DNA from: Pseudomonadota bacterium
GTDB taxonomy: Bacteria > Desulfobacterota > Desulfovibrionia > Desulfovibrionales > Desulfovibrionaceae
Reading direction: 5' to 3'
NCBI GenBank assembly: GCA_018816865.1
Contig: JAHIUW010000016.1
Span: forward strand, 1-64,000
DNA length: 64,000 nt
Of the stretch, positions 30,846 to 56,130 are shown piece after piece; within the stretch, counting starts at the first letter, position 1; the number at the start of each line of letters is the position of its first letter. Under the pieces are notes generated by a model that made no database searches, was not told the origin of the DNA, and saw only the letters and a program-made list of their open reading frames with translations. The position numbers and the translations under genes were made by a program.

Positions 30846-30922
30846 GCGCCAGTAGCTCAGTTGGATAGAGCATCGGCCTTCTAAGCCGACGGCCGGGGGT
30901 TCGAATCCTCCCTGGCGCACCA
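30846..30922 (+). tRNA. tRNA-Arg (TCT), prophage attachment gene
   Basis: The acceptor stem GCGCCAG pairs with CTGGCGC; the anticodon loop CTTCTAA gives TCT; CCA is encoded at 30920-30922. The gene is intact and the integrase begins 107 bases downstream. The 3' half of this tRNA is therefore the likely left attachment core. The second copy (attR) is not in the window. Confidence 0.97.
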
Positions 30923-31028: not shown

Positions 31029-32231
31029 ATGGCAGCCCGCAAATTCCTCAAGACCCGCTATCGCGGCGTCTACTACCGTGAATCCCCCAACCGCCGCCCT
31101 CACCGAGGGCATGCGGACCGCTGCTATGCGGTCTGGTACAAGGGCGCGGACGGCAAAGGTCACTGGGAGACCATCGGTTGGGCCTCCGAAGGTGTTACGC
31201 CCGAATACGCCAGCCAGAAGCGCAACGACCTGGTCAACACCATCCGCGACGGCAAGCCCATCCCCGTCAAGGGTGCCCAGCGCTTCACCGTGGGCCAGGC
31301 CGTGGAATCCTATGAGGCCTGGGCACAGACCGAGGGCAAGTTCATCGACAAGGAGATGAACCGATGGAACAAGCACATGCGCGCCAGCTTCGCCGCCCTG
31401 CCCATCGACTCCATCACCGTGGCCATCCTGGTGTCGCACAAAACCAAGCTCGCGCTTCGCATGTCCGCGCAATCGGTCAATCATTGTTTCTCCTTTGTCC
31501 GCCGCGCCATCAACCACGCCATCGGCATGGAGCTCTACTCCGGCCCCAATCCGATGAACTCGCGGCGCAACTCGAAATTTTCCCTGTCCCAGCCCGACAA
31601 CGAATCCAACCGCTACCTCACCCCCCAGGAGGCCAAGGCCCTGCTGGCGAATCTGCGCAACCGCTCCAAGCAGTTGCACGACATGAGCCTGCTGTCCCTC
31701 AAGACGGGCCTGCGCGCGGTGGAGATCTTCAGCATCACCGGCGCGGACCTGGACGCCCCTGCAGGCGTAATCCGCTTCACGGCCAAGGGTGGCCGCCGCG
31801 ACTCGATCCCCGCCCCTGCGGACATGATCGAGTTGCTGCAGTCCTATGGCCGCGCCCCGGGGGAGCACATCTTCCAGGCGCGCAATGGCGGCCCCATCAC
31901 CAGAGGCATCAGCTCCGCCTTTGGCCGCGCCGTGGCCGACCTGAAACTCAACGAGGGCTGGCCCCGCTCCTGCGACCACGTGATCTTCCATACCTTGCGA
32001 CACACGTTCGCCAGTTGGCTGGCCCAGTCCCGCCAGGTCACGCTGCAGGAGCTCAAGGAACTGATGCGCCACGAAAAGATCAGCATGACCCTGCGCTACG
32101 CCAAACTCATCCCCGGTCACGAGCGCGACCGCCAGGCTATCATCGCTGACGTACTGAGGGCCGCAGACCTCGCCGCCGACGTTGCCGCAGACCTTGCCGC
32201 AGACACGGACGCGGACTTGATCAGCGACTGA
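31029..32231 (+). CDS. int: Tyrosine-recombinase phage integrase
   Basis: 400 residues. An N-terminal arm-binding region leads to a core-binding SAM-like domain (about 95-190) and the catalytic domain, with Arg in KTGLRAVEIF, the HTLRHTFASWL box and the Tyr nucleophile in MTLRYAKLIPG. The set R-H-R-Y appears complete. The C-terminus ends in an Ala-Asp repeat (AADLAADVAADLAADTDAD) encoded by short direct DNA repeats at 32155-32215. Its position beside tRNA-Arg fits integration there. The ribosome site is weak. Confidence 0.93.
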   Translation: MAARKFLKTRYRGVYYRESPNRRPHRGHADRCYAVWYKGADGKGHWETIGWASEGVTPEYASQKRNDLVNTIRDGKPIPVKGAQRFTVGQAVESYEAWAQTEGKFIDKEMNRWNKHMRASFAALPIDSITVAILVSHKTKLALRMSAQSVNHCFSFVRRAINHAIGMELYSGPNPMNSRRNSKFSLSQPDNESNRYLTPQEAKALLANLRNRSKQLHDMSLLSLKTGLRAVEIFSITGADLDAPAGVIRFTAKGGRRDSIPAPADMIELLQSYGRAPGEHIFQARNGGPITRGISSAFGRAVADLKLNEGWPRSCDHVIFHTLRHTFASWLAQSRQVTLQELKELMRHEKISMTLRYAKLIPGHERDRQAIIADVLRAADLAADVAADLAADTDADLISD

Positions 32232-34990: not shown

Positions 34991-35425
34991 ATGCCCCCTA
35001 AAACAAGAAAACCCGAGCTCCAGCCATTTAGTCAAAGACTAAGGGATGTTATCGTTGAGCTCGGCGTAGAACAAAAAGAACTCGCTGCTATTGCAGAAAT
35101 CCAAGCGCCAACAGTCACAGCCTACTTGAAGGCTGAAAGTCAGCCTTCAATGCTTGTTCTGTCGAAATGGGCCGAGAAATATCGAATTGATATGAACTGG
35201 CTTGTTCTTGGCGAAGGCCCCATGTTCCGAGACGAACAGGAGCAGCCCAGAAACGAAGACGCCGGGACAAAGACCGAGCTGGGAAAGGAACTCGCAGACA
35301 TCAAGGCAGCGCTCAAATCGGTTGAAACCAGTGAGGAAGAAATCAAGCAGGCTCTGCTCGATTACATCGGGGGAGGTAGATCTCCACTGAAACCCGCCAC
35401 AGGCACCGACGACGGCTCACGCTAA
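34991..35425 (+). CDS. CI-like prophage repressor
   Basis: 144 residues. The N-terminal HTH runs FSQRLRDVIVELGVEQKELAAIAEIQAPTV, then YLKAESQPSMLVLSKWAEKYRIDMNWLVLGEGPMF, typical of phage CI N-terminal domains. A charged coiled-coil follows in place of the S24 LexA-type peptidase domain. It therefore lacks the self-cleavage site, and induction may work through an antirepressor or a partner. Low GC compared with the operon opposite. The ribosome site is weak. Confidence 0.8.
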   Translation: MPPKTRKPELQPFSQRLRDVIVELGVEQKELAAIAEIQAPTVTAYLKAESQPSMLVLSKWAEKYRIDMNWLVLGEGPMFRDEQEQPRNEDAGTKTELGKELADIKAALKSVETSEEEIKQALLDYIGGGRSPLKPATGTDDGSR

Positions 35426-35744
35426 TAGCAGGTAAATGCAAAGGCGACGGCATCCCACGCGGGACACTGACGCCTCTTTTTTGAACAACTCACAATGGCA
35501 AACCGATATATCCTACTAAGGCACGAGAGTACACAAACCAACAGATATTCACCGGGTTTTTTTTTCTGCCATTGACGACAGGTGAGCCAACTAATGACAT
35601 TACCGTTTGCCCCTTTCCTCTCTGGACAAACGCCAGTTGGCCTTCAAACGAGCCCCTTTATCTTGAGTTTTCATATCGAACGAGGTAACCACTCAGGGGT
35701 TGAAGACTTCACCCCTTTTTTAGCCAGACAATAGCGAGAAACCG
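35426..35744. other. Gap between repressor and dnd cassette
   Basis: A terminator at 35440-35482 closes the repressor gene. The remaining 260 AT-rich bases are the upstream region of the dnd cassette and should contain its promoter. No small gene is seen. Confidence 0.5.
35440..35482 (+). terminator. Terminator after the repressor gene
   Basis: A bipartite hairpin: outer GGCG/CGCC and inner TCCC-ACGC-GGGA, followed by CTTTTTT. Confidence 0.75.
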
Positions 35745-36902
35745 TTGAATCACGCATGCAATATTGAAGAAAATCTCCAAGGGACCATCGATGGCCTCCC
35801 TATTGATGAATGCTGGAGAACGGTTATTGATGAAATCAAGGAAGAATACCTTGATCCAACAAACAACCACCCTTGGGTTATTGGCTTCTCTGGAGGCAAA
35901 GACAGCACAGTAGTTGCCCATGCCGTATTTGAAGCTATCCTCGAGGTCTCCCCATTCAAGCGCACCCGACATATTTACTTAGTTTCTAACGACACGCTTG
36001 TGGAAAGCCCTCTGGTAATCAACCACTTGGATAATGTAACAAGTCGGATTGATGAGGCAGCACGCAGCCTGGGCCTTCCAATCACAGTAGCTAGAACAAA
36101 ACCCGATATCCATCACTCCTTTTGGGTACTTCTCATCGGAAAAGGTTACCCAAGCCCCAACTCTACAATGCGTTGGTGCACTGATCGTTTAAAAATCCTC
36201 CCGACCAACGGTTTTATCAAAGAACAAGTTTCACGATCAGGTGCAGTAATTGTCGTACTGGGAGTTCGACGTGACGAGAGCAGTTCCCGGCGTCGATCCA
36301 TCGACAAATACAGGAACATCAGAGGTGGACGACTCACGGAACACGAAAAACTCCCAGGTGCTTATATTTATCGCCCAATTGTCGACCTAACAACAGCTGA
36401 TATATGGGAAATACTTTTGAGCTACCACGCACCTTGGGGAGGATCACACGCTGATCTCGTTCAGCTTTATAAAGATGCAAAAGGTGGAGAATGCCCAGTT
36501 ATGCTCACCTCTGATGAGGCTGCAGGTTGCGGCACGACCAGTAGTAGATTTGGCTGCTGGACCTGTACGGTAGTTGAAAAAGACAAAAGTCTTCAAGGCT
36601 TTGTTGATGCTGGAAAACACCAATACGTACCACTTGTCGACTTCCGAGACTGGCTTAGGGCAATTCGAAATGACCTAACCATGCGGCAAGCTATACGTCG
36701 CAATGGAAAACTGACATTCGGAGCAACTGGTAATCATATCCCTGGACCATTCACCATCCAAGCGCGAAAACAAATTCTTGACCGCCTACTATTAGTTCAG
36801 AAGGCCTATGGGCACCAATTAATTTCGGCTGAAGAAATTGACCTCATCCATCAACACTGGGCAACAGAGCTCCAGGAAGAGAAGGGACTGGCCAATGGAT
36901 AG
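35745..36902 (+). CDS. dndC: DndC, PAPS-reductase-type DNA phosphorothioation protein
   Basis: 385 residues. The ATP-pyrophosphatase loop SGGKDST is at residues 49-55. Cysteines in STMRWCTDRLK, GGECPVM and GCGTTSSRFGCWTCTV probably hold an Fe-S cluster. In Dnd systems DndC activates the DNA backbone with ATP so that sulfur can replace a non-bridging phosphate oxygen. It normally works with a cysteine desulfurase (DndA or IscS), DndD and DndE. No dndA is here, so a host desulfurase would be used. The apparent start is TTG; no better in-frame ATG with a ribosome site is seen. AT-rich and unlike the phage genes around it. Confidence 0.9.
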   Translation: MNHACNIEENLQGTIDGLPIDECWRTVIDEIKEEYLDPTNNHPWVIGFSGGKDSTVVAHAVFEAILEVSPFKRTRHIYLVSNDTLVESPLVINHLDNVTSRIDEAARSLGLPITVARTKPDIHHSFWVLLIGKGYPSPNSTMRWCTDRLKILPTNGFIKEQVSRSGAVIVVLGVRRDESSSRRRSIDKYRNIRGGRLTEHEKLPGAYIYRPIVDLTTADIWEILLSYHAPWGGSHADLVQLYKDAKGGECPVMLTSDEAAGCGTTSSRFGCWTCTVVEKDKSLQGFVDAGKHQYVPLVDFRDWLRAIRNDLTMRQAIRRNGKLTFGATGNHIPGPFTIQARKQILDRLLLVQKAYGHQLISAEEIDLIHQHWATELQEEKGLANG

Positions 36903-37095
36903 TTCTTACTTAAACGACCTTCCACTTTGGGCCGATGACGAAGCCCATACAATCCTTGAGAATATATGCAAGGAGGCCAACGTCCCCGTGGAAGTAATCA
37001 CACAGTTGGTCATGCTCCAACGAGAACGCCAGCACCAAGAACGAGCTGCGGGCATTTACCCCCGAATTGAAGAAATACTTGGTCTGATCGACTAA
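36895..37095 (+). CDS. Small DNA-modification-associated protein
   Basis: 66 acidic residues (MDSSYLNDLPLWADDEAHTI...) with a likely two-helix body. Its ATG overlaps the end of dndC by eight bases, so it is translated with it. Small proteins at this place between dndC and dndD are seen in other modification cassettes. Its role is unknown; a subunit or chaperone of the complex is a reasonable guess. Confidence 0.75.
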   Translation: MDSSYLNDLPLWADDEAHTILENICKEANVPVEVITQLVMLQRERQHQERAAGIYPRIEEILGLID

Positions 37096-37116: not shown

Positions 37117-39189
37117 ATGTGGATATCTAAAATTGAACTGACCAACTTTAAGTCTTACGAACACCAAGTCTTTACCTTCCCAGAAGCGTGTGACGGTAAA
37201 AATATTGTCCTCATTGGAGGCATGAATGGGTATGGCAAAACTTCAATTTTAGAAGCCCTATACCTCTGCCTTTATGGTAAAGACGCCATAAACCACTTGG
37301 CCCGCGCCGGACTAAAAACTGAAGATTTGAAAGGTTATCCAACTTTTTTGGAACGCGCCTTCAATGGTGAAGCTTTTCGCAAGGGAAGCGACATGATGAT
37401 GCTCCGAGTCGTCATTAACAAGACCAAGACAGTGGCCTTTGATATTTCACGAAAGTGGTACTTTCGCTCTAATGGGACGTGGACTGCTGAAGAAGAAACC
37501 GTAGTTCGCGAGTTGGACCGAGATGTGCCAGGCACTCCAAAACTCGATGGTAGAAACAATTTTCATCTTTCAGACATGTTGGATGATTTTTTTGTACCCG
37601 CGCACATTGCTCCTTTTTTCTTTTTTGATGGCGAAGAAGTGAAAAAACTGGCGGATCAAGGCCGCGTGGAGCAAGTGAAGCAAGGACTCGAAGGACTACT
37701 TGGCGTGGTTCTTCTCCGGATGCTTTCCGACCGGCTTCGCACTTTTGCAGGTCAAAAACGTAACGGCGTTGTAACTGTTGATGAAAACAAGCTGAATAAG
37801 TTATTAGATACATTATTGGAAGACCAGGCGTCACTAAACACGTCGCGTGAAAAGATCTTTATCGCCACAGAAAAGGAATCCGAGCTAAGAATTGAACGCG
37901 AGTCATTGCTAAACCGCATCACTACAATTGGAGGCGGAGGTGGTGATATCGCTACTGTAAAAGACTTGGTTGAAGAGCGAGAGCAATTTAGAAATAAAAT
38001 AAAAGAGTGTCGGAAAAAATTAGAAGAATTGCTTACTGGTCGACTCCCCTTCCACTTAGCATCTAAAGATATTTTGAACAAATTCAAAAATCAAATTGAA
38101 GGGGAAATTCGTTATTATAAATGGGAAGCAGACAAAGGTTCATTAGAACCTCGTAAAATTGAGTTCAAAACAGCCTTCAACAATGAAAGAACACCTGAGA
38201 TCAATCCAAATCTTACTGAGGCACAGGTTGAAGCCATTCATCAACGCATTGATTCTGCGTGGGCTAGCCTTTTCTACCCTCCACCGGAAGACTGTGCTAC
38301 TGTAATCATCCACAGTTATCTACATGAATTATTACGCCATAAGATTTTGGAGTTCATGGACAGTATATCTCTTGGTCGCCAAGAAATTCATTCTCTCTTG
38401 CGCGAGGAAAAGCAGCTATCCAAGCACATCGATGAACTTGCCAGAAGGATCTACAAAATAGAAGGAATTGATCGAGACGGCACGCTTGCCACCCTTAAAG
38501 ACGAGTTAAAAGAAATCCAAGACCGACTTGACCATCTGCAAGAGCAAATGAGAATTGATGACAGAGCTGGAATCGCTCTTGAAGCTAAAGTGTCTTCACA
38601 AAAAGCTGAATACGAAAGAGAAAAGAAAAAACTGGACGACTCCAGCCCTGCTCGCACTATCATTGAGAAATCAGAACGCGTACGAAAAGTGATTGATCAA
38701 TTAATTCCGGCTCTCTTCCCACTTAAGGTCAAAGAACTGGGAGCCGCAATGACAAAATTTTACAAGCAACTTGCGCACAAAGACCAAGTGGCTAAGATCG
38801 AAATCTTAGACAACGGTCAATCTCGCATTCTCGGAAAATCCAATAAAGAAATTACTTTTGATCGTTCGGCAGGCGAAAACCAAATCTTCGCTACGGCACT
38901 TCTCGCAGGCCTCGCGCAAGTTTCTGGAGTCAACGCCCCTATGGTCGTAGACACCCCCCTGGGCCGCCTTGACAGCACACATCGACTAAATATTCTCAAT
39001 TTCTGGACAGACGACAAGCAACGTCAAGTCATCCTTCTCTCCCAAGACGAAGAAATCCACTACGATTTTTTCCAGCAAATCAAGGGAAGTGTCATTAAAA
39101 CTTACCTCCTTGAGTATCAAGATGTAGGGGATGGCATAGGTAGGACTACGGCCAAAGAAGGCTGCTATTTTGAAGGAAAAAGGCAATGA
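37117..39189 (+). CDS. dndD: DndD, SMC/RecN-like ATPase of DNA phosphorothioation
   Basis: 690 residues. N-terminal ABC half with IELTNFKSYEHQVF and Walker A GGMNGYGKTSILEAL near residue 35. The DndD mark PFFFFDGEEVKKLADQ is near residue 165. Long coiled coils occupy about 210-530. The C-terminal half has signature SAGENQIFATALL and Walker B PMVVDTPLGRLD. DndD hydrolyses ATP and is thought to open or position DNA for sulfur insertion. Downstream it overlaps the next gene by four bases (ATGA). Confidence 0.92.
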   Translation: MWISKIELTNFKSYEHQVFTFPEACDGKNIVLIGGMNGYGKTSILEALYLCLYGKDAINHLARAGLKTEDLKGYPTFLERAFNGEAFRKGSDMMMLRVVINKTKTVAFDISRKWYFRSNGTWTAEEETVVRELDRDVPGTPKLDGRNNFHLSDMLDDFFVPAHIAPFFFFDGEEVKKLADQGRVEQVKQGLEGLLGVVLLRMLSDRLRTFAGQKRNGVVTVDENKLNKLLDTLLEDQASLNTSREKIFIATEKESELRIERESLLNRITTIGGGGGDIATVKDLVEEREQFRNKIKECRKKLEELLTGRLPFHLASKDILNKFKNQIEGEIRYYKWEADKGSLEPRKIEFKTAFNNERTPEINPNLTEAQVEAIHQRIDSAWASLFYPPPEDCATVIIHSYLHELLRHKILEFMDSISLGRQEIHSLLREEKQLSKHIDELARRIYKIEGIDRDGTLATLKDELKEIQDRLDHLQEQMRIDDRAGIALEAKVSSQKAEYEREKKKLDDSSPARTIIEKSERVRKVIDQLIPALFPLKVKELGAAMTKFYKQLAHKDQVAKIEILDNGQSRILGKSNKEITFDRSAGENQIFATALLAGLAQVSGVNAPMVVDTPLGRLDSTHRLNILNFWTDDKQRQVILLSQDEEIHYDFFQQIKGSVIKTYLLEYQDVGDGIGRTTAKEGCYFEGKRQ

Positions 39190-40715
39190 GCGGATTATCT
39201 ATTCAGCAGATTCTGAGTGCTCGATACCGCACTAGTAAAACTGCAGACGAATTTACTATGTCTTTAATGGACGTGTTAGGCTTATCCACCAAAGCCAGCG
39301 TTGCGAGGTTAGCAATCGGCCGCTCTCTTGCCCTCGGGGCCATAAGCGGAGACAATATCGATGCAAAAGGCCTTGAGATTCCTGGAACTTCATTGTTCAC
39401 CCAGCAAGATGTACCCATATGGATTGGCATGCTAGTCACTCATTCTATCATGTACAGCAATGTGCCGATTGAAGCCATGGACACCTTCCGCAACCAGATT
39501 CGACATCACTGGCACCGCGGCGTGACCCTACTAATGGAGGATTGGCAATCTCAGGATGAAGATTTCGACCGTTTCTTGGAGACACTGATTAATCGCCGAG
39601 CCGAACTTCCAGAAACAGCACCAGAGCCAACCACGACGCCCGAGCCAACGACTGTTGACGCACCACAAGATATCTCCACTCAACTGGTCAAGGCGCTCGC
39701 CGACATCGGCGTTAAAGTTGAGGTGAAAGACACCATCCATGGCCCACGAGTCACCCGCTATAAAGTGCTGATGTCGGATGTAAACCAACTAGACAAACTG
39801 AAAAAAGGGCTTGAGCGACTCAGCTTGCTACTCAGTCTCCAGCAGGCACGTCCTAGTTTGAGTCATGGGGACGAAGCCAAGACTGTTTTCTTAGACATCC
39901 CGCGCCCCAAAAAAACCTGGATTTATAATTCATTTGATCAGCTCGACAAGTGGATTCAGACAATTCCACATGACCAAGATCGTTTACTCGTCTTTCCAGG
40001 TGTTAATGCCATGGGGATACCCTTTTCCTTTGATTTAGCTGAAGCACCACACCTTTTGGTTGGTGGAGCCACCGGACAGGGTAAAAGTGTATGCCTTCAT
40101 GCACTGATCCTGTCTCTAATTTTACAGCATTCGCCTGATAATTTGCAACTAGCACTCCTTGACCCCAAACAAGTGGAGCTCTCTGTCTATAGAGGATCAA
40201 AATACCTCTACGGTGGAGATGTCGCCACAGGAAACGACCCGTCTAAAGAACGTCTTATGGACTTGGTCGAGGAAATGGACCGAAGATATTCGATGCTTGA
40301 GGGGTTACATGTTACCAACATAAAGGAAGCTCGAAAAAAGGGCGTCAACTTACCTTATATCGTGGTTGTTATCGAAGAATTGGCAGACTTAGTACTCCAA
40401 GACCACGACCTCGAACAAAGTATCGTCCGACTTGCCCAACTAGCTCGTGCCGCAGGCATCCATTTGGTAATGGCAACGCAACGTCCCGATGCAAAAACGT
40501 TCAGTGGTCTTATTCGCAGTAACATCCCAGCCCGTATAGCGTTGACAGTACAGAAACGCACAGAATCATCCATCATCCTTGACGAAACTGGCGCTGAAAC
40601 ACTACTTGGAGCAGGGGACATGCTGATAAAAACAACCAACAACCCAACGACACGAGTTCATGGCGTCTATATATCTAGACAGGACGTTGAGGGTGTTCTT
40701 TTGCGTAAGTCATAA
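39186..40715 (+). CDS. DndE domain fused to FtsK-type DNA translocase
   Basis: 509 residues. Residues 1 to about 125 match the small DndE protein (YRTSKTADEFTMSLMDVLGL...ARLAIGRSLALG...DAKGLEIPGTSLFTQQD), which binds nicked DNA. A Pro/Thr linker follows at about 140-158. Then comes an FtsK alpha-beta translocase: Walker A GGATGQGKS at 293-301, Walker B VVVIEELADLVL, and LARAAGIHLVMATQRPDAKT. No gamma (KOPS-reading) domain or membrane part is present. Normally DndE stands alone and FtsK/HerA-type motors are separate restriction genes (DndH). This fusion would couple modification to DNA tracking. It ends the cassette. Confidence 0.85.
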   Translation: MSGLSIQQILSARYRTSKTADEFTMSLMDVLGLSTKASVARLAIGRSLALGAISGDNIDAKGLEIPGTSLFTQQDVPIWIGMLVTHSIMYSNVPIEAMDTFRNQIRHHWHRGVTLLMEDWQSQDEDFDRFLETLINRRAELPETAPEPTTTPEPTTVDAPQDISTQLVKALADIGVKVEVKDTIHGPRVTRYKVLMSDVNQLDKLKKGLERLSLLLSLQQARPSLSHGDEAKTVFLDIPRPKKTWIYNSFDQLDKWIQTIPHDQDRLLVFPGVNAMGIPFSFDLAEAPHLLVGGATGQGKSVCLHALILSLILQHSPDNLQLALLDPKQVELSVYRGSKYLYGGDVATGNDPSKERLMDLVEEMDRRYSMLEGLHVTNIKEARKKGVNLPYIVVVIEELADLVLQDHDLEQSIVRLAQLARAAGIHLVMATQRPDAKTFSGLIRSNIPARIALTVQKRTESSIILDETGAETLLGAGDMLIKTTNNPTTRVHGVYISRQDVEGVLLRKS

Positions 40716-41050: not shown

Positions 41051-42009
41051 TTAACACTTATGGTTATAGAGTTTATCTGTCATGTCATCATCGCTCAAAA
41101 ATACTATTCTATTAACAAGATAATGATCTTGCATCATTGCATGAGAGTGCAATGCGTTTTCTTTACCCACAAAAATTTTCATTTTTAAATGTCGATATAT
41201 TGAATTGGCAATCAAGTCTGCTGCAAAGGTCATTGCTACGTCGTCTGTCAGACTTAACCCCTTGACATGTTGCACTGCCAAATCCGGATAGTCACATTTA
41301 AACACTATTGATGTCTTAATTTCCTTCTTCTCTTGTTTATCAATTGCCTTGTATGTATAAACATGCTGATCTTTGGAAAGGTGGGTGATCTTCTGTCTTG
41401 CCTTCCGCAGGATTGATTTATCCATATTGTCTGAAATCATTTCTGATGAGTGATCACCTTCGATCTTACATATCTCGTCTAATTTTATTACCACTCGCTC
41501 AAAAACAGAATGATAGATGTCATTTTGCTGTGATTTAGTCACTCTAACGAAGTTATCATTCTTAGGCACAGAAAATTTCTGTTTTATGAATTCACTTTCT
41601 TGCATGTTAATATAAGCACCAGATAGGCAAATAGCTTCATAGACTATCAATATCTCGCTATGCAGAAAGAACTCTAAGTATTCGTTTAGCACTCTTTCAT
41701 TTCGGTCTCCGACAAAAACAAATGCAGACCTAACTTTAGAACAGTTTTCTTTGTCTAAACTGGAGTATAATTTGTTTAGTACACTTGAATAGTCACTTAA
41801 GTGCCGAGTGGGGAATGCAAAGCCTGCGACAACCCCAAACGATCCCGGTTTGGGCTCTTTTTCAAGATACCCAAAATCACCAGACTCATCAAAATAGAAT
41901 AAGACATCATGATCCGACATATGATCCTCGCTACTTGTTGCCCTGGCTAAAGACATGCCCACAAAAGTCTATTCACCAGGCGCAATTGCGTGGGTGCTTG
42001 TGTGGGAGC
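41001..42009. repeat. Imperfect direct repeats around the DUF3800 gene
   Basis: The 38-base segments at 41001-41038 and 41972-42009 are direct copies with roughly 30 identical bases, both ending TTGTGTGGGA-x-x. They bracket the DUF3800 gene. The right copy lies inside the tail of an integrase remnant. They may be old attachment-site duplicates of a small integrated element. Confidence 0.55.
41051..41920 (-). CDS. DUF3800 protein
   Basis: 289 residues. The N-terminal motif FYFDESGDFGYL is the hallmark of DUF3800, an RNase H-like fold with Asp-Glu active-site candidates. The C-terminal TFAADLIANSIYRHL carries a further conserved Asp. The ATG at 41920 follows GAGGA; the frame to 41962 is not needed. 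AT-rich, and opposite in direction to the dnd cassette. DUF3800 genes are frequent in mobile elements and defence islands. No activity is proven for this one. Confidence 0.8.
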   Translation of the reverse strand: MSDHDVLFYFDESGDFGYLEKEPKPGSFGVVAGFAFPTRHLSDYSSVLNKLYSSLDKENCSKVRSAFVFVGDRNERVLNEYLEFFLHSEILIVYEAICLSGAYINMQESEFIKQKFSVPKNDNFVRVTKSQQNDIYHSVFERVVIKLDEICKIEGDHSSEMISDNMDKSILRKARQKITHLSKDQHVYTYKAIDKQEKKEIKTSIVFKCDYPDLAVQHVKGLSLTDDVAMTFAADLIANSIYRHLKMKIFVGKENALHSHAMMQDHYLVNRIVFLSDDDMTDKLYNHKC

Positions 42010-42401: not shown

Positions 42402-43397
42402 TTAAATCCCTTCCCCATCCATGCTCAACACCAGCCCACCGCCACCCAGGCTGTGAACCACCCGCGTCACGCTCCATTCCCTGGCCATGCCCTCGCGGAA
42501 GCCACCGCCCAGGACAAGGCGACTCTCCGCCATGACCCCCGGGCGACCAGGAAGACTCAGGGAAAGGCTCGCCTTGCCACGCTGGAAGGCCTCCAGCTTC
42601 GCGCGTGCGGCCTGCTGAGCAGCGTCTCGTGTCGGGAAGGCATGACGAATCCGGCAGGTGGGCTCGCCCTCGCCTGCGCATTCCTCCACGTCTCTGGCGG
42701 CGTCTACATCGCGCCAGGTGGCCACAACGGTCTTATAATTTTGACGGCCCGAGATGGTCACGCTGCAACTGGTGACGTCCCCGGGCACGAGCGAGATCCG
42801 CTCCAGCTCCTTGCCGGAGGCGGTCTGGCCCTGTCCCTTTTTCACAAAGATCAAGCTCCCGCCATTGGCCTTGGCCACGGCGTCCATGTCCATGGCCAGG
42901 CGCGTCAGCAGGTGCATATTTGATTCGTTGATCTGGTCCACGTGCGGCAATGTAATCTTGCCGATCTCCGGGCCAACCGCAGGCGTCAGGCCATGCTCGG
43001 AGGCAATCGCTTCCACCAATTCTCGCACCGTGCGCGGCGTCCAGGAACGTGTCTGCTGTGTTTGCAGCTCCCGGTAGGCCGTGCTTTTCTCAAAGGGCGC
43101 ACCCGCCGCCTTGATGGTCATGCGTGCCGGCGATAGGCTCAGCCCGATCTCGTCCACCACATACAGCCCCATGAACCGGACCGACGGCTCATAGCCGAGC
43201 CAGACACGCAGCTCCGCCCCCTGGGCCGGGAGCCTGATATGCGGCGGGGAGTCGTCCAGGACCAGTGACAGGCTGTCGGACTGCATCCCGGCCTCGTCGG
43301 TGATGGACAGGGAAATGAACCGCTTGCGGATGGTCGCGGTGATGTCGTCGCCATTGGCCACGATGCGGAATGCGGGCTTGTGCAGTTTCGCTTCCAT
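42402..43397 (-). CDS. D: Tail protein D (baseplate hub, gpD/VgrG type)
   Basis: 331 residues, P2 gpD family (late control protein D), which forms the hub to which the spike binds. It shows the beta-barrel start FRIVANGDDITATIRKRFIS and the central segment ITLPHVDQINESNMHLLTRLAMD. It is the last gene of the tail operon, as in P2. Confidence 0.9.
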   Translation of the reverse strand: MEAKLHKPAFRIVANGDDITATIRKRFISLSITDEAGMQSDSLSLVLDDSPPHIRLPAQGAELRVWLGYEPSVRFMGLYVVDEIGLSLSPARMTIKAAGAPFEKSTAYRELQTQQTRSWTPRTVRELVEAIASEHGLTPAVGPEIGKITLPHVDQINESNMHLLTRLAMDMDAVAKANGGSLIFVKKGQGQTASGKELERISLVPGDVTSCSVTISGRQNYKTVVATWRDVDAARDVEECAGEGEPTCRIRHAFPTRDAAQQAARAKLEAFQRGKASLSLSLPGRPGVMAESRLVLGGGFREGMAREWSVTRVVHSLGGGGLVLSMDGEGI

Positions 43398-43400
43398 CGC

Positions 43401-43607
43401 CTAATCCCAAAGGCTAATGCCCGTCTCCGGCTCCGGATCGGGCAGGTCAGGTAGGTTGATGACCACCCCGGCCCCAAGCACCGGCCCCAGGTCCGCCAGC
43501 CCCAGGTTGGCCTTCAACACGGCCTCGACCGTGCCGTCTGTCCGGCCATAGTGGCGGTGGCAGATGTCGTCGATCATGTCGCCGTCCTTGCTGCGATAGC
43601 GGAGCAT
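43401..43607 (-). CDS. X: Tail protein X (LysM-like)
   Basis: 68 residues. The P2 gpX family has a LysM-like fold: MIDDICHRHYGRTDGTVEAVLKANLGLADLGPVL. It sits between U and D as in P2 and probably helps attach the baseplate. Confidence 0.9.
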   Translation of the reverse strand: MLRYRSKDGDMIDDICHRHYGRTDGTVEAVLKANLGLADLGPVLGAGVVINLPDLPDPEPETGISLWD

Positions 43608-43997
43608 TTAGGCCTCCCCGAAGTAACGAAGCTTGAGGGAAAATTCGATCTTGCGCGGCACGCCATCGGCAAAGAACACGCGCTGCGTCTCGGTGACCAT
43701 CAGGATCGCCCACTTGCCGTGGATCCTCCCCAGGCCATCCACCAACAACAGCGGCTCGCCCTGAGCGGCCTCCGCGCGCATGTCCTCCACCTGGTCAACC
43801 GCACCCGCAAACTGCGGATAGATCACACCGGACAGAGAGAGGGAGTCCTCACCCGGCCCAAGATACTGCAAGGCAGCGTGCTGGCCATGGCGCTCCTGGG
43901 CGGCCCAGCGATAGGCGCCAGAGCGCTGCAGCTCCTGATACGCGGCGGTGTTCAGGGAGAAGGCATACCGCCCGAGCTTCATCATGATTTTTGGCAT
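43608..43997 (-). CDS. U: Tail protein U
   Basis: 129 residues of the P2 gpU family (tail completion or baseplate part): KLGRYAFSLNTAAYQELQRS and WAILMVTETQRVFFADG. It is followed directly by X. Position and length fit. Confidence 0.88.
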   Translation of the reverse strand: MPKIMMKLGRYAFSLNTAAYQELQRSGAYRWAAQERHGQHAALQYLGPGEDSLSLSGVIYPQFAGAVDQVEDMRAEAAQGEPLLLVDGLGRIHGKWAILMVTETQRVFFADGVPRKIEFSLKLRYFGEA

Positions 43998-44000
43998 AGG

Positions 44001-45860
44001 TTAGTCATAGAGAGCGCCACGCCGGGCATCGCGCGTGCGCTCGTCGAGTTTGCGCATGACCGCATCGGCAATCTCGTCGGCAGACTGCCCGGGCGCGGCA
44101 TACACGTGGATGCCCTCGACACGCTGCGTGATCTGCGCACCGCCGGACATGGAAGGAAGATCAGGGATGGAGAGCGCACCCGCCATGGCCGGGACGGAAA
44201 CCCCACCGCCACCGGCAGCACCCCCGGGGCCGGGGGTCTTGGCCGCCTCATCGCCCCCAAAGAAATCGAAGTAGCGCCCCACCGCCCCAAGGAACCCACC
44301 CTCCGCAAACGACTTCTTCAAATCGTCCCAGATGGTGATCAGCCGGACCACAGCCAGCGTGATGCCGGTGAGGACCAGACCGATGGGGTTGGAGGCAAAG
44401 GCGATGCCCACAGCCTTGATGCCCGCCACAAGCCCGGGCAACGCCATGGCGATGATCGGTTGCAGGGCCGCCCCCGCCGCCCAAAGCGACTGCCCGAACT
44501 GCACGACGCTGAGCATGGTCTTTGCGCCCAGGGTCACGGCCACGGCAATGGCCAGGTTGTCGAAGCCGCCAAGCATCCCTGCGGTCCAGGAGATGACCGT
44601 GCCCACGGTCCTGAAGACGGAGGCCAGGCCACTGCCGAAGGACACGACAGCGGGCACCAGCTCCTTGACCGTGGTCCCGATCTCGGAGAAGGCGCTCCGG
44701 TTCTCGCGCACCCAATCCGCCAGCTTCGGCCCCCATTCCTCAATCACCGGGGCCAGCGCCCCGCCAATCAACCCGGAGATCTCCTGCGTGGTGGAGGCAA
44801 TGACCGTGGAGAACTTGGCAAAGGCCACATTGTACTTCTGCGCCCCGGCCCGCCCTTCGTCGGACAGGACGTTGAGCTGCTTCTGCTGGGCAAGCAGCTC
44901 GTCCACGCCCTCCTTGCGGCTGCGCAGATAGCCGAAGAATTTGTTCGCCTCGCCACCCATGAGGATATCGGCGGCGGAAACAGCGGCCTGGTGGTCGTCC
45001 AACTCCTTGACGGCCTCGGCCACACGCCGGAATTGTTCCTCCGGGGAGAGGTTCTGCAACTCCTCAAAGGTCAGGCCGAGGATCTGCAGGCTTTCGGTGA
45101 CCGCCGTGATCTCCTCGAGCCCTGCGGATTCGCCAATCTTGTTGTTCAGCTCCTCCATCAAGTCGCCGACGTTGTCGACCTCGAAGCCCATCTCCTTGGC
45201 CAAGCCACCCCAGGCCGCCAAACCATCGGCGGAGACGTTCAGGGACTGCGCCAGGGCGGTCTGCTCCCCCGTCATCTTGTTGGTCATGGTCACCGCCGCA
45301 CCCACCGCGCCGACGCTTGCGCCGACAACGGCGGTGAAGCGCGCGGCGTGCCCGGCCATGTTCCGGAAGCTGCCACCCACGTCGGCACGCACCACGCCCT
45401 GGAAGGCCTTCATGCGCCGCTCGGCCTTGGCGACCCCCTCCGACAGGCGGTCGAATTCGCCCTCGAGGTCATGGGTATTGACCCCGGCCTTCTTCAACTC
45501 GTGATTGAGGATGGAGAGCTGGCCCTTCTGGCGGCCGTAGGCCTTGGCGGTCTTGTCCGCCTTGCGCTGCGCCCGCTCGAATTCGGCCCGCAGCTTTCTG
45601 TTGGGGTTGGCGGTCTGGGCAAGCTGCTCACCAAGGCGCTGGGCCTCCCCGCGCGACTCAACCATCTCGCGCTTGGCCCGGCCCAAGGCCTTCATGTCGA
45701 ACCCGGCGAACTTGTGCAGCTTGTCCTGCTTGGCCTTGATGTCCTGAAAGGCAGAGCTGATGCCGGACAAATCACCCTGTACGGCCTTGGTCGCCGTGCT
45801 GAAGGAACTGCCCACGGCGGCCCCGAATTCGACGACTGCGGATAATCGCTGCTTGGTCAC
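44001..45860 (-). CDS. T: Tail tape measure protein T
   Basis: 619 residues. A long helical N-terminus (coiled coil, about 70-200) leads to a hydrophobic core with several membrane-like helices (about 430-530) and a Gly/Pro-rich region near the end. Such proteins set tail length and may enter the cell envelope at injection. The start is GTG at 45860, with GGAG ahead. It is placed directly after the E' stop, so it is read together with the frameshift region. Confidence 0.9.
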   Translation of the reverse strand: MTKQRLSAVVEFGAAVGSSFSTATKAVQGDLSGISSAFQDIKAKQDKLHKFAGFDMKALGRAKREMVESRGEAQRLGEQLAQTANPNRKLRAEFERAQRKADKTAKAYGRQKGQLSILNHELKKAGVNTHDLEGEFDRLSEGVAKAERRMKAFQGVVRADVGGSFRNMAGHAARFTAVVGASVGAVGAAVTMTNKMTGEQTALAQSLNVSADGLAAWGGLAKEMGFEVDNVGDLMEELNNKIGESAGLEEITAVTESLQILGLTFEELQNLSPEEQFRRVAEAVKELDDHQAAVSAADILMGGEANKFFGYLRSRKEGVDELLAQQKQLNVLSDEGRAGAQKYNVAFAKFSTVIASTTQEISGLIGGALAPVIEEWGPKLADWVRENRSAFSEIGTTVKELVPAVVSFGSGLASVFRTVGTVISWTAGMLGGFDNLAIAVAVTLGAKTMLSVVQFGQSLWAAGAALQPIIAMALPGLVAGIKAVGIAFASNPIGLVLTGITLAVVRLITIWDDLKKSFAEGGFLGAVGRYFDFFGGDEAAKTPGPGGAAGGGGVSVPAMAGALSIPDLPSMSGGAQITQRVEGIHVYAAPGQSADEIADAVMRKLDERTRDARRGALYD

Positions 45861-46228
45861 TTACTTGCTCCGGGGAAGGTGCGAGATCCAGATCAGGAAC
45901 TCCTCAACGTCCAGCGCCAGGAGTTCGGCCCGGCTCCAGCCCGTGTAATAGGCCAGGGCCAACATGCCGCGCCGGGCCGTCTCCTCGTCTATGACAAAAA
46001 ACCCGTGTAGACCGCCTGCAGTTTCTTGTAGTCCTTCATGTCCAAGGCCTGGATGACCTCGGGGGTCACCTCGCAGAGGTTGGAGAAGGTGACGGACTCC
46101 TTCTGCAGGTCACTGCCGCCCTTCTTCTCGGCAACCAGCATGTCCCGGAGCACAGGCCGCCGCATGGACAGTTCGCTGTAGTTCTTGCCATTGTTCTCCA
46201 CCGGATATTCAAGAGTGATCTTTTCCAT
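45861..46228 (-). CDS. E+E' tail chaperone, -1 frameshift product
   Basis: At 46001-45995 the minus strand reads T TTT TTG, a classic slippery heptamer, just before the E stop. A -1 slip enters a 45-codon frame that reads VIDEETARRGMLALAYYTGW onward and ends SHLPRSK at 45861-45863. The tape-measure start follows at once. In P2 the same place and signal yield E+E'. The long form is expected at a few to tens of percent of E and should help load tail tube subunits on the tape measure. Confidence 0.8.
45989..46228 (-). CDS. E: Tail assembly chaperone E
   Basis: 79 residues, P2 gpE / Mu gp41 type (MEKITLEYPVENNGKNYSEL...). The short product of the frameshift pair. A ribosome site (AAAGGAG) precedes the ATG. 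Confidence 0.85.
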   Translation of the reverse strand: MEKITLEYPVENNGKNYSELSMRRPVLRDMLVAEKKGGSDLQKESVTFSNLCEVTPEVIQALDMKDYKKLQAVYTGFLS

Positions 46229-46249
46229 CTTGTCGTGCTCCTTTCAGGG

Positions 46250-46759
46250 TTAGATGCCGCAGGCATCGCGAATCGCGGCCAGGCGATCCGTGCCGCCGAT
46301 GATCCGCTTCATGTTCAGCACATCGATCTCGTGCAGGACGCTGCCGTTCTGTTCGCGCTTGTAATAAGTCAGGGACACGGTCACGGAGAGTGTGGACTTC
46401 TCGCCCGGCTTCCAGGATCCAAGCTCGATCTTCACGACCGTGCCGCGCATGTTCAGGGCCACGGGGATGACGGTGCCGTCCAAGCTCTCGAGCGCCCCAC
46501 GGGCAGTCAGCTGCACGCCGTTGTTCGCGGATACGCCGAACTGCCCCAGCAGATGTTCGCACTGCTTGGACACGGTGAACGAGCACTCCAGCTTCTCCAT
46601 GCCCATATCCAGGGAAATGGGCGCGTCCATGCCCCCGGCGCGATAGTCCTCGGTCACCAGGGCCAGGCTGGGCGGCTGCAGCTCATCGCAGTTGCCGACG
46701 TAGCCACGACCGTCCACGAACAGCGCAAAGTTTTTCAGAATGTGATCAGCGGCGGACAT
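46250..46759 (-). CDS. FII: Major tail tube protein FII
   Basis: 169 residues, P2 FII family. It forms the inner tube of the contractile tail. It has the conserved MDAPISLDMGMEKLECSFTV segment. The ATG overlaps the sheath gene's TAA. Confidence 0.93.
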   Translation of the reverse strand: MSAADHILKNFALFVDGRGYVGNCDELQPPSLALVTEDYRAGGMDAPISLDMGMEKLECSFTVSKQCEHLLGQFGVSANNGVQLTARGALESLDGTVIPVALNMRGTVVKIELGSWKPGEKSTLSVTVSLTYYKREQNGSVLHEIDVLNMKRIIGGTDRLAAIRDACGI

Positions 46760-47967
46760 TATTTGAAGACCTCCTCGATATAGTCATCCACCAGGTGCGA
46801 CCTGAAGGTGACGTGTTCAGCCGGGTACGGGGTGGAGAAGTCGAAATCGAAATAGACCTTGCCCTGCGTCGTTTGGTCCGAGGTATTGAGCTCAGGATCC
46901 GCCCAACACGTTCCACCCAGGATCGCGCCCACAGCGGTGAGGTGCCGAAGGTAGGCGTTGACCCCCTCGATGACGTCCTGGACATAGGTCTTGGTGATGT
47001 TGCGATCGACGGCCCACAGATGCGCCTGCAGGATGGACTCGTTGATCATGTCGGCGATGCGGCGCACGGACAGAAAGGCCCACTTGGGATCGGACGACGC
47101 GGTGCGGTTGCCCCACAGGCGGTAGCCATCCTCGTTGATGATGGTGGCCACATTCTTCTCGTTCAGCAGGTTGGCCCGGCAGGACGAATCACCCAGGGTA
47201 AAATCAACCGGGCGCGCGGTGCCGGAGATGCCAAGCACCTGCTGATTGGACGGCGACCACCAGAAGCCCTTCTCGTTGTCGATCAGGGCGATCAACCCGG
47301 CCACGCGGGGCGACGCCGGTTCGGTGACGTACACGCCATCGCGGAAGACCTTGACCCACGGATCCACCATGTAGACACGGGCCGTGCCGTAATCACCGAT
47401 GGCGTTGATGGCGGCCGCATCGTTGGAGTTCGGACCATCAACGATGATCACCGCACGCAGGCGGTTGGCGATGCCTTCCAGTTCGGCCACCACGGGGTTC
47501 TTGAGGTAGGTGCCGGGGTTCTCCGCATCCTCATGGCGCTGATGCGAGAAGCCAGGCGCGATGAGCAGGCGCGGCATAAACCCGAGCACGGACTTGCAGG
47601 CCAGCAGCGCATGCACGCCCTCATACTGGCCCGTTGCCGCGTCCACGCCACCGATGACGTTGGTCAGGGTGGCGGCCTCGTCCGCCCCTTCGGCCACGCG
47701 GATCACGACGACAACGGCCCCGCAATGGTCGAAGATCCCATCCAGGGCAGCGGGCAGCGTGCCCTTGCCATCGCCCACCATGTCCAGCTTGGCTGCCTCG
47801 CGGCGATTGCCCGCGATGAGCACAGGCGTGTTCAGGGGAAAGGCCGCGGCATCCGCATCCGGAGCCGTGCCCACAATGCCGATGGTCGCCGAGCGGACGG
47901 TCTTGATGGGGCGCGGTCCCGAATCGATCTCAAGGATCTCCACGCCGTGCAGAAACAGTTCAGACAT
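46759..47967 (-). CDS. FI: Tail sheath protein FI
   Basis: 402 residues. The sheath family start HGVEILEIDSGPRPIKTVRSA matches P2 FI, and the C-terminus FDFSTPYPAEHVTFRSHLVDDYI is conserved. A strong AAAGGAGG lies ahead of the ATG. It contracts to drive the tube through the envelope. Confidence 0.95.
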   Translation of the reverse strand: MSELFLHGVEILEIDSGPRPIKTVRSATIGIVGTAPDADAAAFPLNTPVLIAGNRREAAKLDMVGDGKGTLPAALDGIFDHCGAVVVVIRVAEGADEAATLTNVIGGVDAATGQYEGVHALLACKSVLGFMPRLLIAPGFSHQRHEDAENPGTYLKNPVVAELEGIANRLRAVIIVDGPNSNDAAAINAIGDYGTARVYMVDPWVKVFRDGVYVTEPASPRVAGLIALIDNEKGFWWSPSNQQVLGISGTARPVDFTLGDSSCRANLLNEKNVATIINEDGYRLWGNRTASSDPKWAFLSVRRIADMINESILQAHLWAVDRNITKTYVQDVIEGVNAYLRHLTAVGAILGGTCWADPELNTSDQTTQGKVYFDFDFSTPYPAEHVTFRSHLVDDYIEEVFK

Positions 47968-47979
47968 CAGGGTCCTCCT

Positions 47980-48585
47980 TTATGCGGTTCTGGTCGCAGG
48001 GGGTTCAGGCCAGGGCACGGCCAAATCATTGGGCCCTTGCCAGGGGAATCCGGATTGCTCCGGCAGACTGCAAAGCTCGTCGACAAACACGTCCCATTCG
48101 GCAATCAGCGCATCGATGGCCGTCAGGTCCGCCCCCGCCGCAACGGCCCTGCGGCGCTCGCGCAGCAGCTGCATCACAGCGGCGTCGTAGACCTCGCGCA
48201 CGCGGCGATCGCGTTCGGCACGAAGGGCTGTTGCATACAGAGCGGTCAGGGCCTGCACATCATCAGCCCAGGCCCCTGCAGCGGCGTCCCAATTCTGGAA
48301 ATCGCCGGGCGCGGTGCCGGTCAGCCCGGCGGGGAGCGCCCCCAGCTCCTCGATGATCAGCGGCTCGCCAGTTGCCGTGGAATAATGGACCTCGCCCCGG
48401 TGGTCCTCCACCAGGTCCCAGCCCTCGCCCGTCCAGACAACGGCCTGGCCTTGGCCCGGCTCTAGTGGTGCGACCTCGGCGGCGTGGGCAGGGATCAGAA
48501 AGCGCCCGTCTTCCAGGGGGTCAGGGCGGGCGATCCCGCTGCCCAGATATTCGCCGGTGCCGGGGTGGAAATTATAGATCTGCAT
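47980..48585 (-). CDS. Tail fibre assembly-like protein
   Basis: 201 residues. The N-terminus (YNFHPGTGEYLGSGIARPDP) is the usual motif of tail fibre assembly or chaperone proteins. The C-terminal half is helical (ALRAERDRRVREVYDAAVMQL). It lies between the fibre and sheath genes. It may help fold the fibre. Confidence 0.75.
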   Translation of the reverse strand: MQIYNFHPGTGEYLGSGIARPDPLEDGRFLIPAHAAEVAPLEPGQGQAVVWTGEGWDLVEDHRGEVHYSTATGEPLIIEELGALPAGLTGTAPGDFQNWDAAAGAWADDVQALTALYATALRAERDRRVREVYDAAVMQLLRERRRAVAAGADLTAIDALIAEWDVFVDELCSLPEQSGFPWQGPNDLAVPWPEPPATRTA

Positions 48586-48595
48586 TGGGTTCCCC

Positions 48596-49579
48596 CTAGT
48601 ATTTGATGATGAACATCAGGGCCACGTTGCGCGGGCGGGTTTCCGTGCCACCAGCAGCGCCAGTGCTGCCTGATTTGGCCCCGTAGCCAGCACCTTCATT
48701 CACGTTAGCTGGATGTGATGTATCAACGGCGGCGGCGGAATGACTGTGACTCTTGAAAGCGTCCGTCTGGGCACTGCCGAACACACGACCAGAATCAACC
48801 CCCCGGCTATGGTCCCAACCACGCACGAACTCGCCGCGCAGGTCGGGCAGCTTGAAGGTGCCGGTTCCAGAACCGAAGACGGTCCCGATAATGGCGTGCA
48901 GGGTGGCATAGGTCGTGGTGGACAGGCTTGCGCCATTGCACTCCAGCCAGCTGCTGGGCACGTCGGTGCCCGCAATGGCAACGACGGTTCCTGCGGGGGT
49001 GTCCGGCGGATGAGTATGGTTGGCGGGAGCGGCTCCGATATCTTCCGGGGTCAGTTCGGTCAGGCTGCCCTGGACCGTGGCAGCCATGGCCGCCATTTGC
49101 TGCACAAGGGCCGCGATGGCGGCGTCCACGTACTTGCTCGTCGCCAGTACGATGGTGGGGTCAACACTCAGGTTGACGACGCCGCTTGCGGTCACTTCCA
49201 ACAGGACCACGACCTTCAACTCGCGGGCCGAACCCTCGGAAAGCTGGGGCTTGTAGGTGTCGGGGAAGTTGCCCACGGCAAAGAGCTTGCCCGTGTCGTC
49301 GAACACGCCCACCTCGCGGGCGGTCCAACCGCCCACCGTGGTGGGCACGATCAATTCCACCCGCATGATGCTCGGGCTTTCAATCTCAACGGCGATATTG
49401 TTGATGTCCGCTCGGTAGACCTCGCGAACCAGGGCCGTCATTTCCGCTGTGGGGGTCATCGCCACCCCGCCGCCGTCGCCAAGGGCCATTTCAGCGAGAT
49501 TGATCGATGTTCCAAGGGCGGTTGCATTCGCCACCGCCGCCGCGCCAACTTTTGTCAAAACAGTAAAGAAATCAGCCAT
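48596..49579 (-). CDS. Tail fibre with collar domain (short gpH-like)
   Basis: 327 residues. The N-terminal baseplate-binding part is VGAAAVANATALGTSINLAEMALGDGGG. A helical linker follows, then a phage tail-collar fold with PSSWLECNGASLSTTTYATL and LPDLRGEFVRGWDHSRG. It ends with ETRPRNVALMFIIKY, where most receptor-binding change occurs. It is shorter than P2 H, so it may be the only host-range protein in view. Confidence 0.88.
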   Translation of the reverse strand: MADFFTVLTKVGAAAVANATALGTSINLAEMALGDGGGVAMTPTAEMTALVREVYRADINNIAVEIESPSIMRVELIVPTTVGGWTAREVGVFDDTGKLFAVGNFPDTYKPQLSEGSARELKVVVLLEVTASGVVNLSVDPTIVLATSKYVDAAIAALVQQMAAMAATVQGSLTELTPEDIGAAPANHTHPPDTPAGTVVAIAGTDVPSSWLECNGASLSTTTYATLHAIIGTVFGSGTGTFKLPDLRGEFVRGWDHSRGVDSGRVFGSAQTDAFKSHSHSAAAVDTSHPANVNEGAGYGAKSGSTGAAGGTETRPRNVALMFIIKY

Positions 49580-50202
49580 TATGCCCCCAGGGGGTTGATG
49601 GTCACGGAATCATAGCCAACCGTCGCCAGGGCAAAACAGGGCTTGCCGCTGCACTGGCGTTCGCCAATGGCCCAGGGGCTCACGGTCACAATGTCGCCGC
49701 TCAAGGCCGTACCGCCCACAAAGAGCGTCCCAGCCACGCGCGCGGCCACGGTAATGCCCGCCAGATGTGAACGGGTGTTTTTCGCCTTGTTGACCACCCG
49801 CTCCAGGGACTTGAGCAAGGCATCATCGATGCCCCGGTCATCGACCTCGATGGTCAGGCGGAAAGTGAAAGGCTCCCCGGTCGGTTCGGCCTCGAACCAC
49901 TCGGTCACGCGGACGCTGTAGCCCAACGCTGAGATCGCGCGGTTCAGAGCCCCGCGCGTGCCCTTGATGCGATGCACGGCCACGGCGGCGGCGATGGTGG
50001 CCCGCTTCTGTTTCCCGGACCAGGTGACGTCCCATTCATCCACGGACAGCGCCCAGGCCAGCCAGGGCAACAAGGGTTCAGGACAGGTGGCCGAATTCCA
50101 GAGAGAGCGAATCGGCACCGGCACCGCAGAGAGGCGGGAACAGGCCTCGGAAAGCGCCCGCTCCCGTGGGGTGGAATTCGGAGGCAGCAGGTGATTAGAC
50201 AC
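49579..50202 (-). CDS. I: Baseplate protein I
   Basis: 207 residues, P2 gpI family. It has the LLPWLAWALSVDEWD segment and IKGTRGALNRAISALGY. The start is GTG at 50202 with GGAGG ahead, overlapping the J stop; an upstream ATG in the frame has no ribosome site. Confidence 0.88.
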   Translation of the reverse strand: MSNHLLPPNSTPRERALSEACSRLSAVPVPIRSLWNSATCPEPLLPWLAWALSVDEWDVTWSGKQKRATIAAAVAVHRIKGTRGALNRAISALGYSVRVTEWFEAEPTGEPFTFRLTIEVDDRGIDDALLKSLERVVNKAKNTRSHLAGITVAARVAGTLFVGGTALSGDIVTVSPWAIGERQCSGKPCFALATVGYDSVTINPLGA

Positions 50203-54669: not shown

Positions 54670-54695
54670 CGCGCTTTCCTGTTTGGAATGTCCGG

Positions 54696-55076: not shown

Positions 55077-55085
55077 GACGACCTC

Positions 55086-56111: not shown

Positions 56112-56130
56112 ATCGAATTCTCCTTGCTAG

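What the first reader, a model, noticed from the sequence alone, without database searches (positions are those of the whole stretch)
39186..40715. DndE fused to an FtsK-type DNA translocase
The N-terminal 125 residues match the small DndE protein, and the rest is an FtsK motor with intact Walker A (GGATGQGKS) and Walker B. The gamma and membrane parts are missing. In known Dnd systems DndE is a separate protein of about 110 residues, and motor ATPases occur as separate restriction genes. A fused form suggests that sulfur insertion, or detection of unmodified DNA, is coupled to movement along DNA.
Basis: partly seen in the sequence, partly recalled or inferred. Interest (0 to 1): 0.8.

Follow-up and report, generated by a model that had tools for sequence, protein, structure and literature searches.

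The report
Sulfur-marking protein fused to DNA motor
A virus dormant in a bacterial chromosome carries a set of genes that probably puts sulfur into the DNA backbone, and one of their proteins, DndE, is truly joined to an FtsK-type DNA-pumping motor; such fusions have been mentioned in print before but, as far as I could find, never tested, and this one sits in a slot where a sister virus carries an ordinary sulfur system with an unfused DndE.

Summary
ORF 39186-40715 encodes a DndE domain (residues 1-138) joined by a low-confidence linker to a complete alpha-beta FtsK motor (about 160-509). It is the last gene of a tight operon dndC / small protein / dndD / dndE-ftsK. An assembly error is excluded: the same-length fusion, at the same place after dndD, occurs in other genomes of the bacterial family, on plasmids, and in about half of 80 dndD loci fetched. 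[quoted passage not shown]

Most likely mechanism, inferred and untested: the motor moves the DndCDE writer along DNA. Main rival: a motor that reads DNA for missing sulfur, like DndH.

The parts
39186..40715 (+). dndE-ftsK fusion (509 aa): DndE domain residues 1-138, low-confidence linker about 140-160, FtsK alpha-beta motor about 160-509
37117..39189 (+). dndD (690 aa), ABC-type ATPase with coiled coil; no CxC hook motif in its sequence
   Evidence: TIGR03185 269.5 bits, cutoff 245.85; best PADLOC model is named PbeC
36895..37095 (+). small protein Sp-DndD / PbeB (66 aa), homologous to the DndD-docking C-terminal segment of canonical DndC
   Evidence: PF20306 E 1e-14; profile-profile comparison with DndC tails 98%, E 2e-13; PF20306 and PADLOC PbeB also hit the tail of a canonical DndC
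35745..36902 (+). dndC (385 aa, TTG start), PP-loop sulfurtransferase core without the C-terminal docking tail; SGGKDST motif, conserved Cys 145, 250, 262, 271, 274; specificity loop N-S-T
   Evidence: TIGR03183 373 bits, cutoff 290; alignment; loop survey
35442..35482 (+). stem-loop plus T-run behind the repressor gene, nearly identical in the sister prophage; left edge of the exchanged cargo segment
   Evidence: sequences printed; blastn breakpoints
34991..35425 (+). phage repressor-like HTH gene directly upstream of the dnd operon, same direction
   Evidence: HTH_3 E 7e-7; RstR/DicA-like
41051..41962 (-). DUF3800 gene in the same cargo segment, role unknown
   Evidence: PF12686 21.7 bits, cutoff 21
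31029..32231 (+). prophage tyrosine integrase beside tRNA-Arg
   Evidence: phrog_1 E 3e-44
30846..30922 (+). tRNA-Arg(tct); its 3' part from 30874 is repeated from contig position 71327 (presumed attachment sites of a 40.4-kb prophage)
42402..59209 (-). P2-like tail and head genes: hub D, tape measure, small tail protein at 46250-46759 (PHROG name 'head closure'), sheath, fibre, major head protein, portal
   Evidence: PHROGs

Best explanation
This is the DndE subunit of a prophage-borne phosphorothioation (PT) operon, permanently joined to an FtsK-type double-stranded DNA translocase. Shown: the domain make-up, the operon dndC-Sp-dndD-dndE.ftsK, the conserved motor residues, the recurrence of the fusion and its cargo position. 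Inferred: Sp replaces the missing C-terminal tail of DndC and docks DndC on the DndD ATPase head; DndD's coiled coil holds DndE; the FtsK motors assemble, probably as a hexamer around DNA, and drive the writer complex along the duplex so that its sites are reached by movement instead of by random binding. Sulfur would come from a host cysteine desulfurase. The prophage would express the operon in the lysogen, marking host and phage DNA; a partner that attacks unmarked DNA, if there is one, is not in the operon. My confidence is about 0.97 for the anatomy and about 0.5 for the motor-driven writer; the number given is for the whole statement.
For: DndE fold and FtsK motor fold with invariant catalytic residues. 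The operon passes curated cutoffs for DndC and DndD. Only one DndE-like stretch was found in the genome with a DndE profile (E <= 1e-6), so the fusion should be the DndE that a writer needs. The ATGA overlap with dndD is kept in most fused relatives. The small protein matches DndC segment 439-484 of Salmonella, which corresponds to E. coli DndC 433-482, a predicted and pull-down-tested DndD interface (PMC12193691); that work also models DndCDE as a ring around DNA with DndE on the DndD coiled coil. Different motors (FtsK, HerA-like, RuvB-like) occupy the same place after DndE, which suggests that DNA movement itself is what is selected. No nuclease gene recurs beside the FtsK-type operons. An IscS/NifS-like desulfurase lies elsewhere in the genome.
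Against: I found no PT data and no biochemistry for any fused member. In L072-L074 and L079 a standalone DndE accompanies DndC-DndD while a second, divergent DndD is followed by DndE-FtsK; there the motor pair may be separate from the writer. HerA-type DndE also occurs with DndD but without DndC, beside N6-methylase genes. In the published DndFGH system the translocase belongs to the restriction side (PMC11662687). Canonical DndCDE needs no motor.
Confidence: 0.55

Rival explanations
1. The fused motor is a reader or effector. Like DndH in DndFGH, it translocates on DNA lacking PT, is stalled by PT, and blocks or exposes foreign DNA; DndE targets it to the sites that the writer uses.
For: In DndFGH, PT represses ATP hydrolysis and impedes translocation (PMC11662687). 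The best PADLOC match of the motor is the FtsK part of SspH, and PMC10853773 puts some DndH and the DndE-fused HerA/FtsK domains in one clade. In L072-L074 and L079 the motor-fused pair is separate from a complete writer.
Against: There is no nuclease in the protein or the operon, and none recurs in relatives of the FtsK type. In the window this is the only DndE found, so a pure reader would leave the writer without its DndE.
Confidence: 0.3
2. The fusion is an assembly error or a decaying gene.
For: The gene lies in a draft assembly of 42 contigs.
Against: Fusions of the same length at the same operon position occur in many independent genomes and plasmids; catalytic residues are invariant; the frame is open.
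Confidence: 0.01
3. The motor serves the phage or plasmid itself (segregation, packaging or DNA transfer), and the DndE part only tethers it to DNA.
For: The operon is on a prophage here and on plasmids in L014-L016; the DndE fold resembles F-plasmid relaxosome entries at Z 9.
Against: The operon moves as a unit with dndC and dndD and is also found outside phages and plasmids; the P2-like prophage has its own portal and head genes; the sister prophage lacks the motor.
Confidence: 0.06
4. The operon is PT-inactive and DndD-DndE-FtsK works as a DNA-manipulating complex without chemistry.
For: DndDE cores without DndC are reported (PMC10853773) and were seen here (L084, L092-L095).
Against: dndC is present, passes its cutoff and keeps the PP-loop and cysteines in all five aligned sequences.
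Confidence: 0.08

Closest known systems
DndE-HerA/FtsK fusions of the 'clade-3' HerA/FtsK group (Rakesh, Aravind and Krishnan 2024, PMC10853773)
   Same: DndE and a HerA/FtsK motor in one polypeptide, next to a DndD-related ATPase, in Dnd modification neighbourhoods.
   Different: Mentioned there in one sentence with no mechanism or experiment; prophage carriage, the split DndC and fusions to RuvB-like or exonuclease domains are not mentioned in the text I read or searched.
Canonical DndABCDE phosphorothioation system (E. coli B7A, Salmonella Cerro 87)
   Same: DndC core, DndD and the DndE fold.
   Different: DndE fused to a motor; DndC split into core and docking piece; no DndB found in the genome; no dedicated DndA in the operon.
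DndFGH / SspFGH restriction modules (DndH/SspH with a HerA/FtsK domain)
   Same: A HerA/FtsK translocase associated with PT.
   Different: DndH is a large multi-domain restriction protein; here the motor is on the writer subunit and no nuclease is attached.
PbeABCD (CxC ABC-ATPase-DndE system)
   Same: The small protein equals PbeB and the ATPase scores best with a PbeC model.
   Different: No PbeA nuclease-helicase; DndC present; no CxC hook in the ATPase; DndE loops are of the DndD-associated type.
Bacterial FtsK motor (6t8b, 2iut)
   Same: Alpha-beta motor fold, Z 43, 35% identity.
   Different: No gamma domain found and no long N-terminal part; branches apart from the host's own FtsK.

Membership tests
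DndE | Pfam PF08870 gathering score | tested here: met
   25.2 bits (26.1 for the N-domain alone) against 25: only just
DndE | NCBIfam TIGR03184 equivalog cutoff | tested here: not met
   19.6-21.6 bits against 71.85; it is a divergent DndE, not an equivalog by this model
DndE | Double ribbon-helix-helix fold of solved DndE | tested here: met
   7x4e Z 15.4, 4lrv Z 12.3
DndE | Clade-1 loop lengths as in PMC10853773 (3-5 residues between H1a and H2a, short C-terminal extension) | tested here: met
   helices 18-31 and 36-48 (4-residue loop), 76-91 and 98-122 (6-residue loop), C-terminal helix 127-138 (criteria)
DndE | Small separate protein of about 110 residues | tested here: not met
   fused, 509 aa
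Dnd phosphorothioation system | DndC and DndD above curated cutoffs, in one operon with DndE | tested here: met
Dnd phosphorothioation system | Cysteine desulfurase (DndA or housekeeping IscS) | tested here: inconclusive
   none in the operon; an IscS-like protein at contig C26 scores 380 bits, below the IscS cutoff of 643
Dnd phosphorothioation system | Phosphorothioate in DNA | not testable with these tools
   needs LC-MS/MS or iodine cleavage
DndFGH restriction partner | dnd_assoc_1/2/3 genes in the genome | tested here: inconclusive
   no match, but the control genomes were silent too
FtsK/SpoIIIE translocase | Alpha-beta motor with Walker A/B | tested here: met
FtsK (cell-division translocase) | Gamma (KOPS-reading) domain | tested here: not met
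   no Pfam match to it; the protein ends with the motor
DndE-HerA/FtsK fusion class (PMC10853773) | DndE fused to the motor next to a DndD-related ATPase | tested here: met
DndE-HerA/FtsK fusion class (PMC10853773) | Motor falls in their clade 3 with DndH domains | not tested
   their alignment was not available; the tree held no DndH
PbeABCD | PbeA nuclease-helicase and a CxC hook in PbeC | tested here: not met
   no PbeA among the genes of 34991-41962 scanned; no CxC in the translated ATPase

The most novel reading that the evidence does not exclude
The DndD-DndE core is a modular platform that has been equipped repeatedly with different DNA motors (FtsK, HerA-like, RuvB-like), making a processive, motor-driven DNA-backbone writer: a modification enzyme that marks DNA while translocating, here carried by a temperate phage.
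Probability: 0.35. Interest if true: 0.78.

Novelty: new member of a known kind. Interest (0 to 1): 0.48.

Why it matters
How Dnd writers come to modify only a fraction of their possible sites (10-15% of GAAC/GTTC in one Salmonella, PMC11662687) is an open puzzle. A natural fusion of the DNA-binding subunit to a translocase gives a direct handle: break the motor with one residue and ask whether PT level, site choice or defence changes. Two prophages of one genus with a fused and an unfused system in the same slot are a ready natural comparison, and the small protein explains how a writer can be split from, and perhaps exchanged on, its DndD scaffold.

Tried and rejected
phmmer of the single N-domain against PDB sequences gave only chance hits; the family profile was needed. 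Tail length of DndC or presence of Sp does not track motor fusion strictly: L087 and L091 have full-length DndC with HerA-fused DndE, and L072-L074 and L079 have a short DndC without a detected Sp. The IMG/VR contig with an identical operon begins exactly at the integrase start of this prophage and may come from the same organism's sequence, so it is not counted as independent support. Phage records gave no full-length fusion. The dnd_assoc searches cannot be used as evidence of absence. A sigma-70 scan found no promoter-like site between 35425 and 35745. Papers on TdpABC, a PT system with a HerA-like motor that I know from memory, were not in the library, so it is not used as evidence. Origin of the FtsK motor from the host's own FtsK is not supported: the host copy groups with other cellular FtsK (quick tree, rooting unsure).

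Full report
Observation. The ORF at 39186-40715 is real, open and in an operon of four closely packed genes on the + strand: dndC (35745-36902), a 66-residue small protein (36895-37095), dndD (37117-39189) and the fusion (39186-40715), whose ATG overlaps the dndD stop. DndC and DndD pass their NCBIfam cutoffs. The N-terminal part scores weakly with single-family models (PF08870 25.2 bits at a cutoff of 25; TIGR03184 far below its cutoff), so I tested it three other ways. A profile of 36 homologous N-domains finds one PDB chain, DndE 7x4e, E 1.2e-7. The predicted fold (pLDDT 90) matches two DndE structures at Z 15.4 and 12.3, clear of the next entry at Z 9.0. In alignment it runs together with the standalone 141-145-residue DndE proteins of L072, L073 and L079. 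The rest of the protein is an alpha-beta FtsK motor: Z 43 to the translocating FtsK structure over 350 residues, with P-loop, catalytic glutamate and TQ residues invariant in 36 sequences. Pfam finds no gamma domain.

Not an artefact. The same fusion was found at 66% identity in another genome of the family, at 53-57% on plasmids of Rhizobium, Aureimonas and Burkholderia, where the gene order dndC, small protein, dndD, 'DNA translocase FtsK' is the same, and in about 40 of 80 dndD loci from GTDB genomes. In 348 genomes of the class, 12 had a DndE-like stretch: eight in frames of 513-546 codons, four in frames of 128-140 (the profile was built mostly from fusions, so the ratio is biased). Of the eight, four are of the FtsK type (G000, G148, G341, G262), three are of the HerA-like type (G195, G264, G346), and G228 was not resolved.

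Already known.

The partner of DndE changes. On a tree of 89 DndD sequences the ORF after dndD is DndE-FtsK in 45 rows, DndE-HerA-like in 28, DndE-RuvB-like in one (L075: DndE 46.6 bits, RuvB_C 69 bits), DndE plus a DEDD exonuclease in one (L061), and DndE alone in a few. The labels need at least nine changes (shuffled mean 30.6), and well-supported branches force at least four changes for the FtsK label. It is a quick tree with several long branches, so the exact number is uncertain. In the motor tree each FtsK-fused DndD group has its own motor clade, apart from cellular FtsK. The 2024 paper mentions HerA/FtsK; RuvB does not occur in its main text.

The small protein is the docking end of DndC. 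Full-length DndC proteins have 87-142 residues after the catalytic core; in the split systems there are 0-22. The small-protein family aligns with those tails (98% probability, E 2e-13) and hits Salmonella DndC at 439-484. Independently, Pfam's own Sp-DndD model passes its cutoff on the tail of a canonical DndC (residues 424-462) and PADLOC's PbeB model hits the same place. In E. coli B7A, DndC residues 433-482 are a predicted DndD interface, supported by pull-down (PMC12193691). So Sp most likely docks DndC on DndD. Five loci (L084, L092-L095) have DndD, HerA-fused DndE and no DndC match; four of these have a Sp match, and a family of large N6-methylases lies upstream in four of the five, consistent with an adaptor that can serve another modification enzyme.

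Prophage cargo and a natural swap. The operon lies in a P2-like prophage: integrase next to tRNA-Arg, hub D, tape measure, sheath, fibre, head and portal genes, with the tRNA 3' part repeated 40.4 kb downstream. A same-genus genome (G002) has a prophage 82-89% identical on both sides, but between the terminator-like stem-loop behind the repressor gene and gene D it carries 10 kb of other DNA instead: DndB, a 506-residue DndC with tail, DndD and a standalone 118-residue DndE, plus PbeA and a PbeC-like ATPase. The slot thus holds alternative Dnd cassettes.

Mechanism. Because this is the only DndE-like stretch found in the genome, it should be the writer's DndE. The best-supported reading is that the FtsK motor carries the writer along DNA. 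No data at hand separate the two; a Walker A mutant would.

Limits. PT was not measured; absence of DndFGH in the host could not be shown because the controls were silent; DndB was not found by a search whose controls worked; the sulfur donor is a guess based on one desulfurase-like match.

Noticed in passing
L113 4891-14924 (G002, same genus): Sister prophage carries canonical DndBCDE plus PbeA and a PbeC-like ATPase in the slot that holds dndC-Sp-dndD-dndE.ftsK in the window.
   Followed up: yes
window 36895-37095 and DndC tails in L077, L087, L089-L091, L096, L097, L112, L113: The Sp-DndD/PbeB small protein is homologous to the C-terminal DndD-docking segment of full-length DndC.
   Followed up: yes
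L075 3983-5416: DndE domain fused to a RuvB-like AAA+ motor with the RuvB winged helix, in a planctomycete operon with DndC.
   Followed up: partly
L061 10037-11074: DndE domain fused to a DEDD-type 3'-5' exonuclease (PF00929 93 bits) in Candidatus Parabeggiatoa.
   Followed up: partly
L041-L050, L052, L053, L055-L057, L069, L071, L076, L080, L084, L086-L088, L091-L095: DndE fused to a HerA-like ATPase at the same position after dndD.
   Followed up: partly
L084, L092-L095: DndD plus DndE-HerA without DndC; most have Sp, and an N6-methylase (with a TaqI_C-like specificity protein in some) lies upstream.
   Followed up: partly
L014, L015, L030, L031, L039, L040: A TusA-family sulfur carrier gene directly follows the fusion in six alphaproteobacterial loci.
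   Followed up: no
L014, L023 and others; L047 and others: Two families of small, hydrophobic-looking proteins (about 181 and 158 aa) recur near the fused genes in 14 and 11 loci; a DndB/DGQHR-like gene recurs in 30 of 84.
   Followed up: no
L072-L074, L079: Standalone DndE with DndC-DndD, followed by a second divergent DndD, a DndE-FtsK and two more conserved genes.
   Followed up: partly
L017 8412-8813 and 14674-15072: Two closely similar ORFs flank the dnd operon in the same orientation in G148.
   Followed up: no
window 41051-41962: DUF3800 gene next to the operon in the same exchanged segment.
   Followed up: no
IMGVR_UViG_3300014656_006081 (L098, L104): 39.8-kb viral contig that holds the same operon at 100% identity and starts at the same integrase base as this prophage.
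   Followed up: partly
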